NCBI RefSeq assembly: GCF_009498275.1
Contig: NZ_CP045643.1
Span: forward strand, 1,116,001-1,180,000
DNA: 64,000 nucleotides
From: Streptomyces fagopyri
GTDB lineage: Bacteria; Actinomycetota; Actinomycetes; Streptomycetales; Streptomycetaceae
Direction: 5' to 3'
Below are positions 48,897-52,857 of this stretch, in pieces. The notes beneath the pieces are model-generated. The model saw only the letters and a program-made list of their open reading frames with translations, did not search any database and had not been told where the DNA came from. The position numbers and the translations under genes were made by a program. Numbering within the stretch: position 1 is the first letter of the stretch; each line of letters begins with the position of its first letter.

Positions 48897-49682
48897 GTGA
48901 CGGACGCCGCGGCCGGGACCGGGAAACGCGCGACGAAGGACCAGGCGCTGTACCGGAAGGTGGCGGCGGACCTGGGCCGGGAGATCGGTGAGGGCCGATA
49001 CGGCTCCGGCGGGCGGCTGCCCGCCGAGGGCGAACTCGCCGAACGGTACGGCGTCTCCCGGGGTACGGTCCGCCAGGCGATGGCCCTGCTGCGCGCCGAG
49101 GGCCTGGTCGCCTCGCGGCGCGGGACCCGGCGGGTCGTGATCGGGACGCCCCGGCCGCAGAGCTTCGGCGAACTGCTCAGTTTCACCCGCTGGGCACGCT
49201 CGATGGGCGAGGAACCCGGCGGCCTGATGATCGCCTCGGCGACCCGGCCGGCCGACGCGACCGAGTGCGTACAACTGCGCCTGCCCGAAGGTGCCGAGGT
49301 CCACCACGTACGGCGGCTTCGTACGCTGTCGGGTCGGCCCGCGATGGTGGAGCGCACCGTCTTCCCGCCGGCCGTCGGTGACCTGGTCGCCGGACTGCCG
49401 CCGGACACCGTGTCGTACACCGTGGCCCTGGAGGAGCGGGGCGTGCTGTTCGCGGACGCCCAGCACACCATCGACCTGTGCCCGGCCGACGCGGAGGACG
49501 CCCGGCTGCTCGGCTGCCGGCCGGGCGACCCCCTGCTGCGCGAGCGGCGGTGCAGCACGGATCCGGCGGGCACTCCGATCGAATGGTCCGATGACCGGTA
49601 CCTGCCGGACACCGTGGCCTTCACCGTCCACAGTTCGGCAGCCTCCGGCTCACTGGCCCGCCGCCCGGCCGGCGACACCTGA
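48897..49682 (+). CDS. GntR family regulator, HutC/UTRA type
   Basis: A 261-residue repressor. The winged helix covers about 15-85 (YRKVAADLGREIGEGRYGSG, GRLPAEGELAERYGVSRGTV, RQAMALLRAEGLV). The UTRA effector domain covers about 95-245 (RSMGEEPGGLMIAS, EVHHVRRLRTLSGRPAMVER, DAEDARLLGCRPGDPLLRER). UTRA regulators of this class control sugar, histidine or phosphonate genes (for example PhnF). GTG 48897 follows GGACGGAGAG. It converges on the dioxygenase-HD gene and very likely binds the operator at 51422. Confidence 0.9.
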   Translation: MTDAAAGTGKRATKDQALYRKVAADLGREIGEGRYGSGGRLPAEGELAERYGVSRGTVRQAMALLRAEGLVASRRGTRRVVIGTPRPQSFGELLSFTRWARSMGEEPGGLMIASATRPADATECVQLRLPEGAEVHHVRRLRTLSGRPAMVERTVFPPAVGDLVAGLPPDTVSYTVALEERGVLFADAQHTIDLCPADAEDARLLGCRPGDPLLRERRCSTDPAGTPIEWSDDRYLPDTVAFTVHSSAASGSLARRPAGDT

Positions 49683-49713: not shown

Positions 49714-49739
49714 GCGGACTGCCTGATCAGGCGGTCCGC
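49714..49739 (-). terminator. Hairpin at the dioxygenase-HD gene stop
   Basis: Ten-base arms (one G-U pair) around TGATCA overlap the stop codon at 49727-49729 and lie between two convergent genes. Confidence 0.5.
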
Positions 49740-51409
49740 AGCAGTGCCGCGAGCAGCGGCCGGAAGTGCGCGAAGTCGGGCGCCGACGCCTCGGGGTCCT
49801 TGCCCTCGTCGTCCCAGCGGCGCACCGCGACCCCGTCCGCCGCGTACGGATTCGCCTCGTAGTCGGCGACCTCGGGTGCGGACATCGGACCACCCTGTAC
49901 CTGAAGCGTGTACACGGAGGCCTCGGTGAGCAGGTCGAAGTACTCGGGCTCGACCGCGCACAGGTACCGCTTCGCGGCCACGTGCAACCGGATCGGCTCG
50001 GTGACCTCGGGGCCGAACCAGTCGGCCAGCCGGTCCGCCCCGGTGTGGCTGTGCCGGTTGTCGGTGCCGGCCATCAGATCCTCGCCGGTGACCGGGCCGT
50101 GGAAGTGGCCGACGTCGTGCAGCAACGCGGCCGCCACCAGGGCGTCGGGCGCCCCCGCCTCCTGGGCCCGCGCCGCGGCCTGCAGCATGTGCTGCGCCAT
50201 CGTCACCGGCTCGCCCAGGTAGGCGCCCGCGCCCTCGCCCGCGAAGAGTTCGGACAGTCCGTCGAGGAACTCCGCGCCCGCCACGTCCCGTTCGCGGCGC
50301 AGTACGGCCAGGGTGCCGGCCAGCGCGTCGATGTCGGCGTAGGCGCCTTGCAGGTGGCGGGCGCCGCTCTCCTCGAAGGCCGTACGGGCGTGCAGCAGCC
50401 GGACATTGTCGAAGATCAGGCAGTCGCCGGGCGCGAGCCGGAAGTCCAGCTGGAGCTCGGGGCGCAGGGTGATCCCGGCGAATTTCCGGTAGGCCCGGTA
50501 GAACGCCTCCAGTTCGTCGGCGGGCAGCCGCAGCGTGGACATCGAGCGGTTGTTGAAGCGCACCTCGCGGATCCGGCCGCGGCCGTCCACGTCGATCAGC
50601 GGCCGTTCGGCCTCCAGTACGGTGCGGGCGTCGGCGAAGCGGAACGGCACCGGTGTGCGGGTCAGCACCGCGAAGGCCTCCGGGTCCTCGGCGCGCAGCA
50701 GCGCGGCGGCCTGGAATCCGTCCACCAGACCGGAGTCACCGCCGCTCGCCGAGTTGGCCAGGCAGTGCAGCAGTTGGAGGGTGGGCACCGGGTCGCGGTA
50801 GGGGTTGTCGGTGTGCGGGGTGATGCGCGCGCCGGTGAAGGCCAGGTTGTTGGGGTCCGGTTCGACCCGAACGTCGAACAGCCGCCCGTAGTTGGTCTCG
50901 CGGACGTAGCCGAAGGTCTGCGCCACGTCGAGCACCTGGCCCGGACGGCACGGGACGTCGCGCAGCAGGGCGAAGCCGAGTCCGAGGACCGAGTCCAGTA
51001 CGCGCGCCTTGACGACCGGGTCGCCCAGGTAGTCCGTCCAGTCCGCCTCGGGCAGCCGGCCGTCCAGGTCGGCGGCGGTCCACAGTGTCTTGCCCGTCTC
51101 GCCGCGCCGGTCCCCGGGCCCGCCGTCGGCGTCGGTGCCCCTACCGGGCCGGTTGGCCGTGAGCCACCGCGTGGAGTACTCCGACCGGTGACCGTCGGGT
51201 GCCCAGTCGACCTCGACCCCGTCGGCGGTCCGGCGGACCGCGCCGAGCGCGAGGCCGGCGGGCAGCTCGGTGATCTGGAACAGCTTCTGCCCGTTGCGCG
51301 GGTCCCGGCACCGGGCGCAGGCGCAGTTGTCCCGCAGCCACATGAGCGGCATGTCCTCCACGGACGGTTCCCCGGCGGACGTTCCCTTGACGGACGGTGA
51401 CGTGGTCAT
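49727..51409 (-). CDS. TauD/GBBH-type dioxygenase fused to an HD-domain oxygenase, phosphonate type
   Basis: A 560-residue cytosolic protein with two enzymes in one chain. Residues 1-85 form the gamma-butyrobetaine-hydroxylase-type N-domain with zinc ligands C29-x-C31-x2-C34 and probably His74. Residues about 110-370 are an Fe(II)/2-oxoglutarate dioxygenase: His199 and Asp201 in TPHTDNPYRD, His340 in VRLLHARTAF. Residues about 385-555 are an HD domain: LLHDVGH (His431, Asp432, His435) and NRHSHTGADRLADW. This pairs the activities of TmpA and TmpB (or PhnY and PhnZ), which hydroxylate a phosphonate and then cleave its C-P bond. ATG 51409 follows AGGGAGAG. The substrate is inferred only. Confidence 0.85.
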   Translation of the reverse strand: MTTSPSVKGTSAGEPSVEDMPLMWLRDNCACARCRDPRNGQKLFQITELPAGLALGAVRRTADGVEVDWAPDGHRSEYSTRWLTANRPGRGTDADGGPGDRRGETGKTLWTAADLDGRLPEADWTDYLGDPVVKARVLDSVLGLGFALLRDVPCRPGQVLDVAQTFGYVRETNYGRLFDVRVEPDPNNLAFTGARITPHTDNPYRDPVPTLQLLHCLANSASGGDSGLVDGFQAAALLRAEDPEAFAVLTRTPVPFRFADARTVLEAERPLIDVDGRGRIREVRFNNRSMSTLRLPADELEAFYRAYRKFAGITLRPELQLDFRLAPGDCLIFDNVRLLHARTAFEESGARHLQGAYADIDALAGTLAVLRRERDVAGAEFLDGLSELFAGEGAGAYLGEPVTMAQHMLQAAARAQEAGAPDALVAAALLHDVGHFHGPVTGEDLMAGTDNRHSHTGADRLADWFGPEVTEPIRLHVAAKRYLCAVEPEYFDLLTEASVYTLQVQGGPMSAPEVADYEANPYAADGVAVRRWDDEGKDPEASAPDFAHFRPLLAALLRTA

Positions 51410-51421
51410 CACGCTCTCCCT

Positions 51422-51439
51422 AAGTTGTATAGCCAACTT
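51422..51439. promoter_or_regulatory. Operator AAGTTG-TATAGC-CAACTT in the phosphonate cassette
   Basis: A perfect six-base inverted repeat with a TATAGC centre, the form bound by HutC/PhnF-type GntR regulators. It overlaps the -10 region (CTATAC on the minus strand) of the fusion gene, 13 bases before its ATG, and lies in the divergent interval with the lyase-family gene at 51713. Confidence 0.7.
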
Positions 51440-51712
51440 TGTCGATGCCGTGAACCTCTCAGCCGCAGTTGAGCGAGGGGTGACGCACGGCTTGCGCGCG
51501 GATGAATGGGACGCGGGCGGGCCCGGAGGCCCGGACGGGGGGACGCGTGACGTTTCTCCGGTGAACCGTTTGCGCCATAGGGGTGAGCAAAGCCCGCCCA
51601 AGGGGAGAGTTCCGTATCGACATAGAGATCCTTTTGTCTTGGCAAAGGGCTGTCGTGTCGCCACGGCCGCCCTTCCGCCCGCCCTGTCGAGCCCCGAGGA
51701 AGGAACCGGACG

Positions 51713-52576
51713 TTGACCTACGGGAAGAAGCTGAGGGAACAGATCGCCGGCCCGGAGACCACTCCGCTGATCGGTGTGTACGACATGTACTCGGCGTCGA
51801 TCGCGGCCGAGCACTACGACGGGATGTTCGTCTCCGGCTTCGGCTTCGCGGCCTCGTACTACGGGCTGCCGGACATCGGATTCATCGCCTGGCCGGACAT
51901 GGTGGCGTTCGTCCAGCGACTGCGGGGCGCGTTCCCGCGGCACCACCTGCTGGTGGACATCGACGACGGGTACGTCGATCCCGAGGTCGCCTGTCATGTG
52001 GTGGAGGGGCTGGAGCGGATCGGGGCGTCGGGGGTGATCCTGGAGGACCAGAAGCGGCCGCGCCGGTGCGGGCACGCCGACGGCAAGCAGGTGCTGCCGC
52101 TGTCCGAGTACCTCGCCAAGCTGGAGATGGTGCTGGCGACCCGGCAGGACATGGTCGTGGTGGCCCGTACGGACGCGACCGACGAGAACGACATCCTGCA
52201 CCGGGCCGAGACGCTCGCCGCGACCGGCGCGGACGTGGTGCTCGTCGACGGGGTGCGCAGCGTGGAATGGATCCGGCGGATCCGCGAGGTGGTCGGTGAC
52301 AAGCCCCTGCTGTTCAACCAGATCGCGGGCGGCAAGTCGCCCCGGCTCTCCCTGGGCGAGCTGTCCGAACTCGGCGTGGACGTCGCCATCTACAGCACGC
52401 CGTGCCTGTTCGCGGCCCACCAGGCGATGCACTCCGCACTCGCCGACCTCAGGGCGGCGGACGGCCGGCTCCCGGTGGTGGACACGACGAACGGTGTCGG
52501 TGTCGCGACCGCCACCCGGCTGCTGGAGCGCAACATCGCCCGTCTGCGGCCGGAGCCCCAGGGCGTGCGCGCGTGA
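51713..52576 (+). CDS. Isocitrate lyase / PEP mutase superfamily enzyme
   Basis: A 287-residue TIM-barrel enzyme. Metal ligands are visible in HLLVDIDDGYVDP (Asp84, Asp85 region) and ILEDQ (Glu111, Asp112). The loop PRRCGHADGKQVLP carries the Cys119-Gly-His of the lyase branch (isocitrate and methylisocitrate lyases), not the EDK-x-x-x-x-NS loop of PEP mutase. It should cleave or form a C-C bond of a 2-hydroxy- or oxo-dicarboxylate, or a phosphonate analogue. The TTG start at 51713 is supported by GAGGAAGG eight bases upstream. It is divergent from the dioxygenase-HD fusion and shares its operator region. Confidence 0.82.
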   Translation: MTYGKKLREQIAGPETTPLIGVYDMYSASIAAEHYDGMFVSGFGFAASYYGLPDIGFIAWPDMVAFVQRLRGAFPRHHLLVDIDDGYVDPEVACHVVEGLERIGASGVILEDQKRPRRCGHADGKQVLPLSEYLAKLEMVLATRQDMVVVARTDATDENDILHRAETLAATGADVVLVDGVRSVEWIRRIREVVGDKPLLFNQIAGGKSPRLSLGELSELGVDVAIYSTPCLFAAHQAMHSALADLRAADGRLPVVDTTNGVGVATATRLLERNIARLRPEPQGVRA

Positions 52577-52857
52577 CACCGCGGCCGGCGCCGTCGCCGC
52601 GTCTGCGCACGGCCGCCGTACTGACGCTTGCCCTGCTGGGTGCCGGGGCGGCACCGGCGGTCGCGGGCGACAGCCTCATCACCGTGCTGGACAACTCGCA
52701 CGCCGACTCGATCCTCGAGGTGGACCGGGCCGCCAACGTCCAGCAGGGCAGCGGAACGGCCGGCAGCGACCACGAGGGCAGCGCCGTCGACATGGTGGAG
52801 GCCCTCGTCGCGGCACACCCGCACGAGGAGGGCGCCGGGACGCGGGACGACGACTGA
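52573..52857 (+). CDS. Small secreted protein, unknown
   Basis: A 94-residue protein with a clear signal peptide (LRTAAVLTLALLGAGAAPAVAG, about residues 11-32) and a mature part of about 60 residues (SLITVLDNSHADSILEVDRA, EGSAVDMVEALVAAHP). The GTG at 52573 overlaps the stop of the lyase-family gene (GTGA), so the two are coupled. I recognise no domain. The coupling to the cassette suggests a related role outside the cell, but this is inference. Confidence 0.65.
   Translation: MTPRPAPSPRLRTAAVLTLALLGAGAAPAVAGDSLITVLDNSHADSILEVDRAANVQQGSGTAGSDHEGSAVDMVEALVAAHPHEEGAGTRDDD

What the first reader, a model, noticed from the sequence alone, without database searches (positions are those of the whole stretch)
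49727..52576. Single-chain TmpA/TmpB-like dioxygenase-HD fusion in a compact regulated cassette
Residues show a GBBH-type zinc N-domain (C29, C31, C34, His74), a 2-oxoglutarate dioxygenase triad (His199, Asp201, His340) and an HD domain (LLHDVGH) in one 560-aa protein. TmpA/TmpB and PhnY/PhnZ are established as separate enzymes that hydroxylate and then oxidatively cleave phosphonates. A fusion would channel the hydroxyphosphonate directly. The divergent isocitrate-lyase-family enzyme and coupled secreted protein are not part of known Tmp or Phn pathways, so the substrate or product handling may be new.
Basis: partly seen in the sequence, partly recalled or inferred. Interest (0 to 1): 0.82.

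Follow-up and report, generated by a model that had tools for sequence, protein, structure and literature searches.

The report
Fused phosphonate-cutting enzyme with its regulon
A Streptomyces gene joins two known enzymes into one protein that probably frees phosphate from a choline-like phosphonate, and a shared DNA switch ties it to lipid-cutting enzymes, pointing to a way soil bacteria may mine phosphorus from lipids.

Summary
The gene is real: window 49727-51409 (-), 560 aa, a TmpA-like Fe/2-oxoglutarate oxygenase and a TmpB-like HD diiron oxygenase in one chain. The TmpA half passes NCBI's TmpA cut-off; the HD half misses both curated cut-offs but keeps its diiron ligands. A confident model matches TmpA and TmpB crystal structures. 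The fusion is common in actinomycetes, beside unfused pairs, and a PhnY-PhnZ fusion (fungal PhoF) is in print. The isocitrate-lyase-family gene and its small partner do not belong: they occur together without the fusion elsewhere. What belongs is a convergent GntR gene and a sharply conserved operator (AGTTGnnTAnnCAACT) 13 nt before the ATG, with PHO-box-like repeats upstream. In relatives the same operator precedes an ABC transporter and a two-gene unit, an EEP-fold protein plus phosphocholine-specific phospholipase C. That unit has a one-mismatch site in this genome too and co-occurs with TmpA in the family (58 of 69 genomes). Best reading, inferred: a phosphate-starvation regulon that frees phosphonocholine from lipids and turns it into glycine betaine and phosphate. 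Nothing has been tested biochemically. New variant of a known kind.

The parts
49727..51409 (-). Fusion gene, 560 aa: TmpA-like Fe/2OG oxygenase (N) plus TmpB-like HD oxygenase (C)
51161..51355 (-). GBBH-like N-terminal domain, residues 19-83 (C29, C31, C34, H74)
   Evidence: Pfam PF06155; conservation
50339..51046 (-). TauD domain, residues 122-357 (H199, D201, H340, R351; phosphonate-site N188, N287, R288)
   Evidence: Pfam PF02668
49730..50290 (-). HD oxygenase half, residues 374-560 (H407, H431, D432, H453, H476, D533; Y397xxE400)
   Evidence: Structure match to TmpB 6npa over 374-560; alignment
48897..49682 (+). GntR/UTRA regulator gene, convergent with the fusion; homologue present in 61 of 80 loci
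51423..51438 (.). Predicted GntR/HutC operator AGTTGTATAGCCAACT (near-palindrome), 13 nt before the fusion ATG; only exact match in the genome
51464..51507 (-). PHO-box-like units in 11-nt register (ATTCATC, CGTCACC, GCTCAAC; 6, 5 and 5 of 7 to GTTCAYY)
   Evidence: positions -98, -76, -65 from the ATG; family-wide enrichment
51556..51588 (-). PHO-box-like units 22 nt apart (GCTCACC 6/7, GTTCACC 7/7)
   Evidence: positions -179, -157 from the ATG

Best explanation
One polypeptide carries both steps of the TmpA/TmpB pathway. The N-terminal Fe/2OG half would hydroxylate 2-(trimethylammonio)ethylphosphonate (phosphonocholine), and the C-terminal diiron HD half would cut the C-P bond, giving glycine betaine and phosphate. 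Its promoter carries a GntR/HutC-type operator, presumably bound by the convergent GntR and released by substrate, and PHO-box-like repeats for phosphate starvation. In relatives the same operator precedes an ABC transporter related to aminoethylphosphonate transporters and an EEP-fold protein plus phosphocholine-specific phospholipase C, so the regulon would free choline-type headgroups from phosphonolipids, import them and mine them for phosphate. Shown here: fusion, ligands, fold, conserved operator, operator shared with the lipase unit, co-occurrence. Inferred: substrate, catalysis, regulator-operator binding, induction, order of steps.
Against: HD half misses the TmpB cut-off (199/300) and narrowly Phn-HD (202.6/214.6). 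In this genome fusion, lipase unit and transporter lie far apart, and no operator within 2 mismatches is near the transporter. One-mismatch operator sites in this genome are as frequent as in the reversed-pattern control, so the lipase site rests on comparison. 11 of 61 loci with the GntR lack the operator, including close relative L036. 11 of 69 genomes with the EEP gene lack TmpA, and 45 of 103 with TmpA lack the EEP gene. Phospholipase C also frees ordinary phosphocholine. Statistics are not corrected for relatedness. No activity or binding was measured.
Confidence: 0.65

Rival explanations
1. The fusion acts on another aminophosphonate (2-aminoethylphosphonate, partly N-methylated forms, 3-aminopropylphosphonate), like fungal PhoF, and the choline link is incidental.
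For: The HD half misses the TmpB cut-off; PhoF takes 2-amino- and 3-aminopropylphosphonate (review passage); the nearby transporter is nearest to 2-aminoethylphosphonate transporters.
Against: The first half passes the TmpA cut-off and keeps aromatic residues at Y174, F178, F191 (47 of 48; cage role recalled); the operator is shared with a phosphocholine-specific phospholipase C.
Confidence: 0.2
2. The regulon handles ordinary choline lipids: it is induced by phosphocholine and the fusion meets phosphonocholine only as a minor by-product.
For: Phosphocholine-specific phospholipase C (717 bits, cut-off 580.25) and the EEP gene share the operator.
Against: A C-P cleaving pair would not be needed for phosphocholine; TmpA occurs in 45 of 394 genomes without the EEP gene.
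Confidence: 0.12
3. A carnitine/betaine-type hydroxylase joined to an HD phosphohydrolase, unrelated to phosphonates.
For: GBBH-like N-domain and 30% identity to human GBBH; [quoted passage not shown]
Against: GBBH cut-off not met; R288 of the phosphonate site in 48 of 48 fused rows; the HD half has the oxygenase YxxE and H..HD..H..H..D set.
Confidence: 0.03
4. One reading: the isocitrate-lyase-family enzyme and the small protein process the product of the fusion.
For: They lie divergently next to the fusion in this genome.
Against: Not beside the fusion in relatives; found without it in other Streptomyces; the operator lies 13 nt from the fusion ATG and is not seen at the gene's relatives.
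Confidence: 0.03

Closest known systems
TmpA/TmpB of Leisingera caerulea (6npb, 6npa)
   Same: Both folds, metal ligands, TmpA phosphonate ligands, order of the two steps
   Different: One chain instead of two; HD half 42-43% identical and under the TmpB cut-off; GntR operator and lipase unit around it
PhoF of Fonsecaea multimorphosa
   Same: 2OG oxygenase and HD oxygenase fused in one chain that degrades phosphonates (review passage)
   Different: Fungal; described as a PhnY-PhnZ fusion with 2-amino- and 3-aminopropylphosphonate as substrates; paper not held, sequences not compared
PhnY/PhnZ and G. maris PhnY/PhnZ
   Same: HD half resembles PhnZ (34-35% identity)
   Different: TmpB is nearer than PhnZ by sequence score; hydroxymethylphosphonate dioxygenase model only 138.7/300
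PhnF and other GntR/HutC regulators
   Same: GntR + UTRA domains; operator core GTATAGCC fits the HutC consensus GTMTAKAC at 7 of 8 (PMC4494728 passage)
   Different: Below the PhnF cut-off; convergent with its target; own operator sequence

Membership tests
TmpA (2-trimethylaminoethylphosphonate dioxygenase) | Score over the curated NCBIfam cut-off NF049936 | tested here: met
   427.9 bits, cut-off 400
TmpA (2-trimethylaminoethylphosphonate dioxygenase) | Fe ligands H..D..H and the 2OG arginine | tested here: met
   H199, D201, H340, R351 in 48 of 48 fused rows
TmpA (2-trimethylaminoethylphosphonate dioxygenase) | Phosphonate ligands N187, N287, R288 (PMC9296572 passage) | tested here: met
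   N188 and N287 in 47, R288 in 48 of 48 fused rows
TmpA (2-trimethylaminoethylphosphonate dioxygenase) | Hydroxylation of 2-(trimethylammonio)ethylphosphonate | not testable with these tools
   Needs an assay
TmpB / Phn-HD oxygenases | Score over NF049941 (TmpB) | tested here: not met
   199 bits, cut-off 300; four unfused TmpB-like relatives also miss it, 178.7-211.5
TmpB / Phn-HD oxygenases | Score over TIGR03276 (Phn-HD) | tested here: not met
   202.6 whole, 206.6 for the half alone, cut-off 214.6; fused relative L026 passes with 221.9
TmpB / Phn-HD oxygenases | H..HD..H..H..D diiron set and YxxE loop | tested here: met
   48 of 48 fused rows
TmpB / Phn-HD oxygenases | TmpB fold | tested here: met
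PhoF-type fused phosphonate oxygenase | 2OG oxygenase and HD oxygenase in one chain | tested here: met
PhoF-type fused phosphonate oxygenase | Common descent with PhoF | not tested
   PhoF sequence and paper not held
Gamma-butyrobetaine dioxygenase | Score over TIGR02409 | tested here: not met
   357 bits, cut-off 414.75
PhnF regulator (window 48897-49682) | Score over TIGR02325 | tested here: not met
   108.2 bits, cut-off 156.8
Phosphocholine-specific phospholipase C (regulon partner, L118:1026-2996) | Score over TIGR03396 | tested here: met
   717 bits, cut-off 580.25
Methylisocitrate lyase (neighbour 51713-52576) | Score over TIGR02317 | tested here: not met
   140.5 bits, cut-off 354.4

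The most novel reading that the evidence does not exclude
Actinomycetes run a GntR- and phosphate-starvation-controlled regulon for phosphonolipids: a phosphocholine-type phospholipase C and an EEP-fold phosphodiesterase release phosphonocholine, a transporter imports it, and a single-chain TmpA-TmpB enzyme turns it into glycine betaine and phosphate, a route independent of C-P lyase in a genus where phosphonate use is hardly explained.
Probability: 0.45. Interest if true: 0.78.

Novelty: new variant of a known kind. Interest (0 to 1): 0.6.

Why it matters
A 2021 review (PMC7866108; passages and section 20) says C-P lyase genes are very rare in Streptomyces and that the breakdown of aminoethylphosphonate by a Streptomyces isolate has had no molecular analysis; the parts I saw do not mention an oxidative route. 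Here is a candidate route, widespread in the family (103 of 394 genomes; 85 matched over both halves in one stretch), with a short operator that predicts the rest of the regulon, including where the phosphonate may come from. Fused and unfused forms alternate within one lineage, a natural set for testing what fusion buys.

Tried and rejected
Isocitrate-lyase gene and small protein as partners: rejected. A first structure model with 20 close homologues was poor, pLDDT 68.6; redone with 98 rows. GTnTAnAC as operator: 3 of 90 regions, about what shuffles give, mean 2.4; the motif used later came from reading the upstream sequence and the palindromes that one search listed, and was then scored. 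Sigma-70 scan of 51380-51740: none. PEP mutase in this genome: none over the cut-off; PhnJ: none. EEP protein against solved structures: no hit; its Pfam hit is weak, E 2.6e-6. Distance between the two metal sites, hence channelling: not computed, the model files were not in the script box. The original TmpA/TmpB and PhoF papers are not held, so both are known here from review passages and recall. In print: the listings of searches showed no paper that I recognised as treating a bacterial TmpA-TmpB fusion or this operator; of the papers listed I opened 12 in passages (one of them, PMC7866108, also one whole section), the rest I saw as listings only, and most subscription papers are missing from the library.

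Dropped rows: the tree used 83 of 90 rows (left out: L005 and L048 for broken frames; L010, L070, L072 and L086 because no TmpB was found; one extracted stretch under 300 aa). PHO-unit counts used 74 of 81 upstream regions after removing near-copies. The search for the EEP gene in genomes of fetched loci used 50 of 80 loci. The aromatic-cage positions and the idea that substrate releases the GntR rest on recall and inference. The operator, transporter and EEP-PLC counts are not corrected for relatedness. Close EEP loci partly come from the same genomes as the 80 loci, so these are not independent samples; L016 and L137, for instance, come from the same locus.

Full report
THE GENE. The minus-strand frame 49727-51409 codes for 560 aa. 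NCBIfam gives TmpA 427.9 bits (cut-off 400), gamma-butyrobetaine dioxygenase 357 (414.75), Phn-HD 202.6 (214.6), TmpB 199 (300) and hydroxymethylphosphonate dioxygenase 138.7 (300). So the first half is a TmpA by the curated rule; the second half is closest to Phn-HD/TmpB but passes neither cut-off. Four unfused HD relatives scanned also miss the TmpB cut-off; two of the four, and fused L026, pass Phn-HD. Two of three unfused TmpA pieces scanned there (L075, L085) miss the TmpA cut-off. The best solved relatives are TmpA 6npb (1.2e-86) for the first half and TmpB 6npa (8.4e-47), then PhnZ, for the second.

SPREAD. 3397 homologues scored under 1e-3 among the 7995 scored; of the 120 listed, 119 are 524-581 aa, and NCBI names many of them as the dioxygenase or the HD oxygenase. 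In 295 Streptomyces, 14 have a hit: 5 fused, 8 an unfused neighbouring pair, 1 a remote 37% protein. In 394 Streptomycetaceae 103 have a hit; 85 are matched over both halves in one stretch, 12 of those stretches holding a stop codon, mostly where they reach the last residues. Of the 80 genome loci, 44 are fused, 33 separate and 3 without a found TmpB; L048, counted as separate, may be a fused gene with a broken frame. A tree of 83 of 90 TmpA halves needs 6 changes between fused and separate, at least 2 forced by strongly supported branches. A fused design is not new in itself: the review PMC10574752 (passages) describes fungal PhoF.

WHAT DOES NOT BELONG. The isocitrate-lyase-family gene (51713-52576) and the small gene (52573-52857) are not linked to the fusion elsewhere. 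Relatives of the isocitrate-lyase gene are in 40 of 121 Streptomyces, this genome included; of six fetched with about 9 kb of flank (less in L119), none has the fusion or GntR beside it, and four keep the small protein.

REGULATOR AND OPERATOR. A GntR homologue lies within the fetched flank in 61 of 80 loci and 41 of 44 fused ones, in those 41 always on the opposite strand. Upstream of tmpA the pattern AGTTGnnTAnnCAACT matches 12 of 12 fixed bases in 34 of 90 regions and 11 of 12 in 21; single-base shuffles give about 0.1 at 11 and none at 12. Within 1 mismatch it is upstream of tmpA in 50 of 61 loci with the GntR and 2 of 19 without (Fisher 2.5e-8, not corrected for relatedness). The 11 loci with GntR but no site include the close relative L036, L044 (one more mismatch) and mostly remote GntRs; the 2 with a site but no GntR found are L033 and L058. 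In this genome the only exact match is at 51423-51438, 13 nt before the ATG. Sites with one mismatch are as frequent as in the reversed-pattern control. The core GTATAGCC fits the HutC consensus GTMTAKAC (PMC4494728 passage) at 7 of 8. That this GntR binds this site is inferred.

PHOSPHATE CONTROL. PMC4415409 and PMC6784220 (passages) give the Streptomyces PHO unit as GTTCACC and GTTCACCCGCC in 11-nt direct repeats. Full GTTCAYY units are in 33 of 74 upstream regions on the coding strand, 7 of 74 on the other strand, and a mean of 5.3 (max 12) of 73 random stretches of the same loci; pairs in 11-nt register are in 14, 0, and a mean of 1.05 (max 5). The window has two such groups of weak to moderate quality, the better one with one full unit.

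THE REST OF THE REGULON. An ABC transporter (binding protein, two permeases, ATPase nearest PhnT2, 391.8 with cut-off 457.7) and a HAD protein lie near tmpA in about half of the loci; the binding protein is in 40 of 80. None of the transporter proteins scanned passes a curated cut-off for an aminoethylphosphonate transporter. Of 27 further operator sites in the 80 loci, 23 are 109-299 nt from the GntR start, one (L056) lies upstream of the transporter binding protein, and three (L016, L034, L039) lie upstream of an EEP-fold gene. That gene (PF03372, 27.8 bits, cut-off 24.5, a weak hit) is followed by phosphocholine-specific phospholipase C (717 bits, cut-off 580.25), whose N-terminus reads like a Tat signal (my reading). 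In this genome the pair sits at about 2.28 Mb with a one-mismatch site. Of 29 EEP loci fetched, the 24 close ones (56-100% identity) are all followed by the phospholipase C gene, and 23 carry a site within 2 mismatches at the start of the gene (22 within 1; the exception L142 has little sequence upstream of its match); the 5 remote ones (34-47%) have neither. In L020 a phospholipase C of this family (703.8 bits) lies between GntR and the fusion. Of 394 family genomes 69 have the EEP gene, 103 have TmpA and 58 have both (odds ratio 33, p 7e-30, not corrected for relatedness). By genus code both/EEP is 43/45 in g27, 10/15 in g20, 3/5 in Streptomyces, 1/3 in g18, 1/1 in g24. From the positions, 36 of the 58 have both genes on one contig: 27 within 30 kb, 9 more than 1 Mb apart, this genome and G297 among the nine (34 of the 36 computed, these two read from the listings). 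In 50 genomes behind fetched TmpA loci 25 have an EEP match under 1e-60, 22 of them close; in the 295 Streptomyces 2 do under 1e-100, both with TmpA.

READING. Taken together this points to phosphonocholine released from lipids as the substrate, with glycine betaine and phosphate as products (products of TmpA/TmpB from the review passage). PMC9311074 (passage) notes that soil protists make abundant phosphonolipids. The main weakness is that phospholipase C also frees ordinary phosphocholine, and nothing here shows binding or turnover. This genome has no PhnJ match, so the oxidative route would not merely back up C-P lyase.

Noticed in passing
window 51713-52857: Isocitrate-lyase-superfamily gene with an RRCGH motif (catalytic Cys recalled) and a small overlapping gene; the pair recurs in other Streptomyces without the fusion (4 of 6 fetched keep the small gene). 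Function unknown.
   Followed up: partly
L117 8874-15335 (G000:C1 about 7.567 Mb): Aminoethylphosphonate-type ABC transporter genes plus HAD gene with their own PhnF-like GntR (49% identical to the window's); no operator within 2 mismatches there.
   Followed up: partly
L118 1026-4862 (G000:C1 about 2.28 Mb): EEP-fold gene and phosphocholine-specific phospholipase C behind a one-mismatch copy of the operator.
   Followed up: yes
G551, G651, G372, G397, G398, G427, G429, G446, G451, G458, G467: Eleven genomes with the EEP gene but no TmpA match under 1e-100; whether they carry the operator was not looked at.
   Followed up: no
L135 12689-13987: A second phospholipase C-like frame (533 bits to TIGR03396 over the piece held) near the EEP-PLC pair of G297.
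   Followed up: no
L005, L048: Fusion or tmpA frames that are broken in these assemblies; real change or sequencing error not decided.
   Followed up: no
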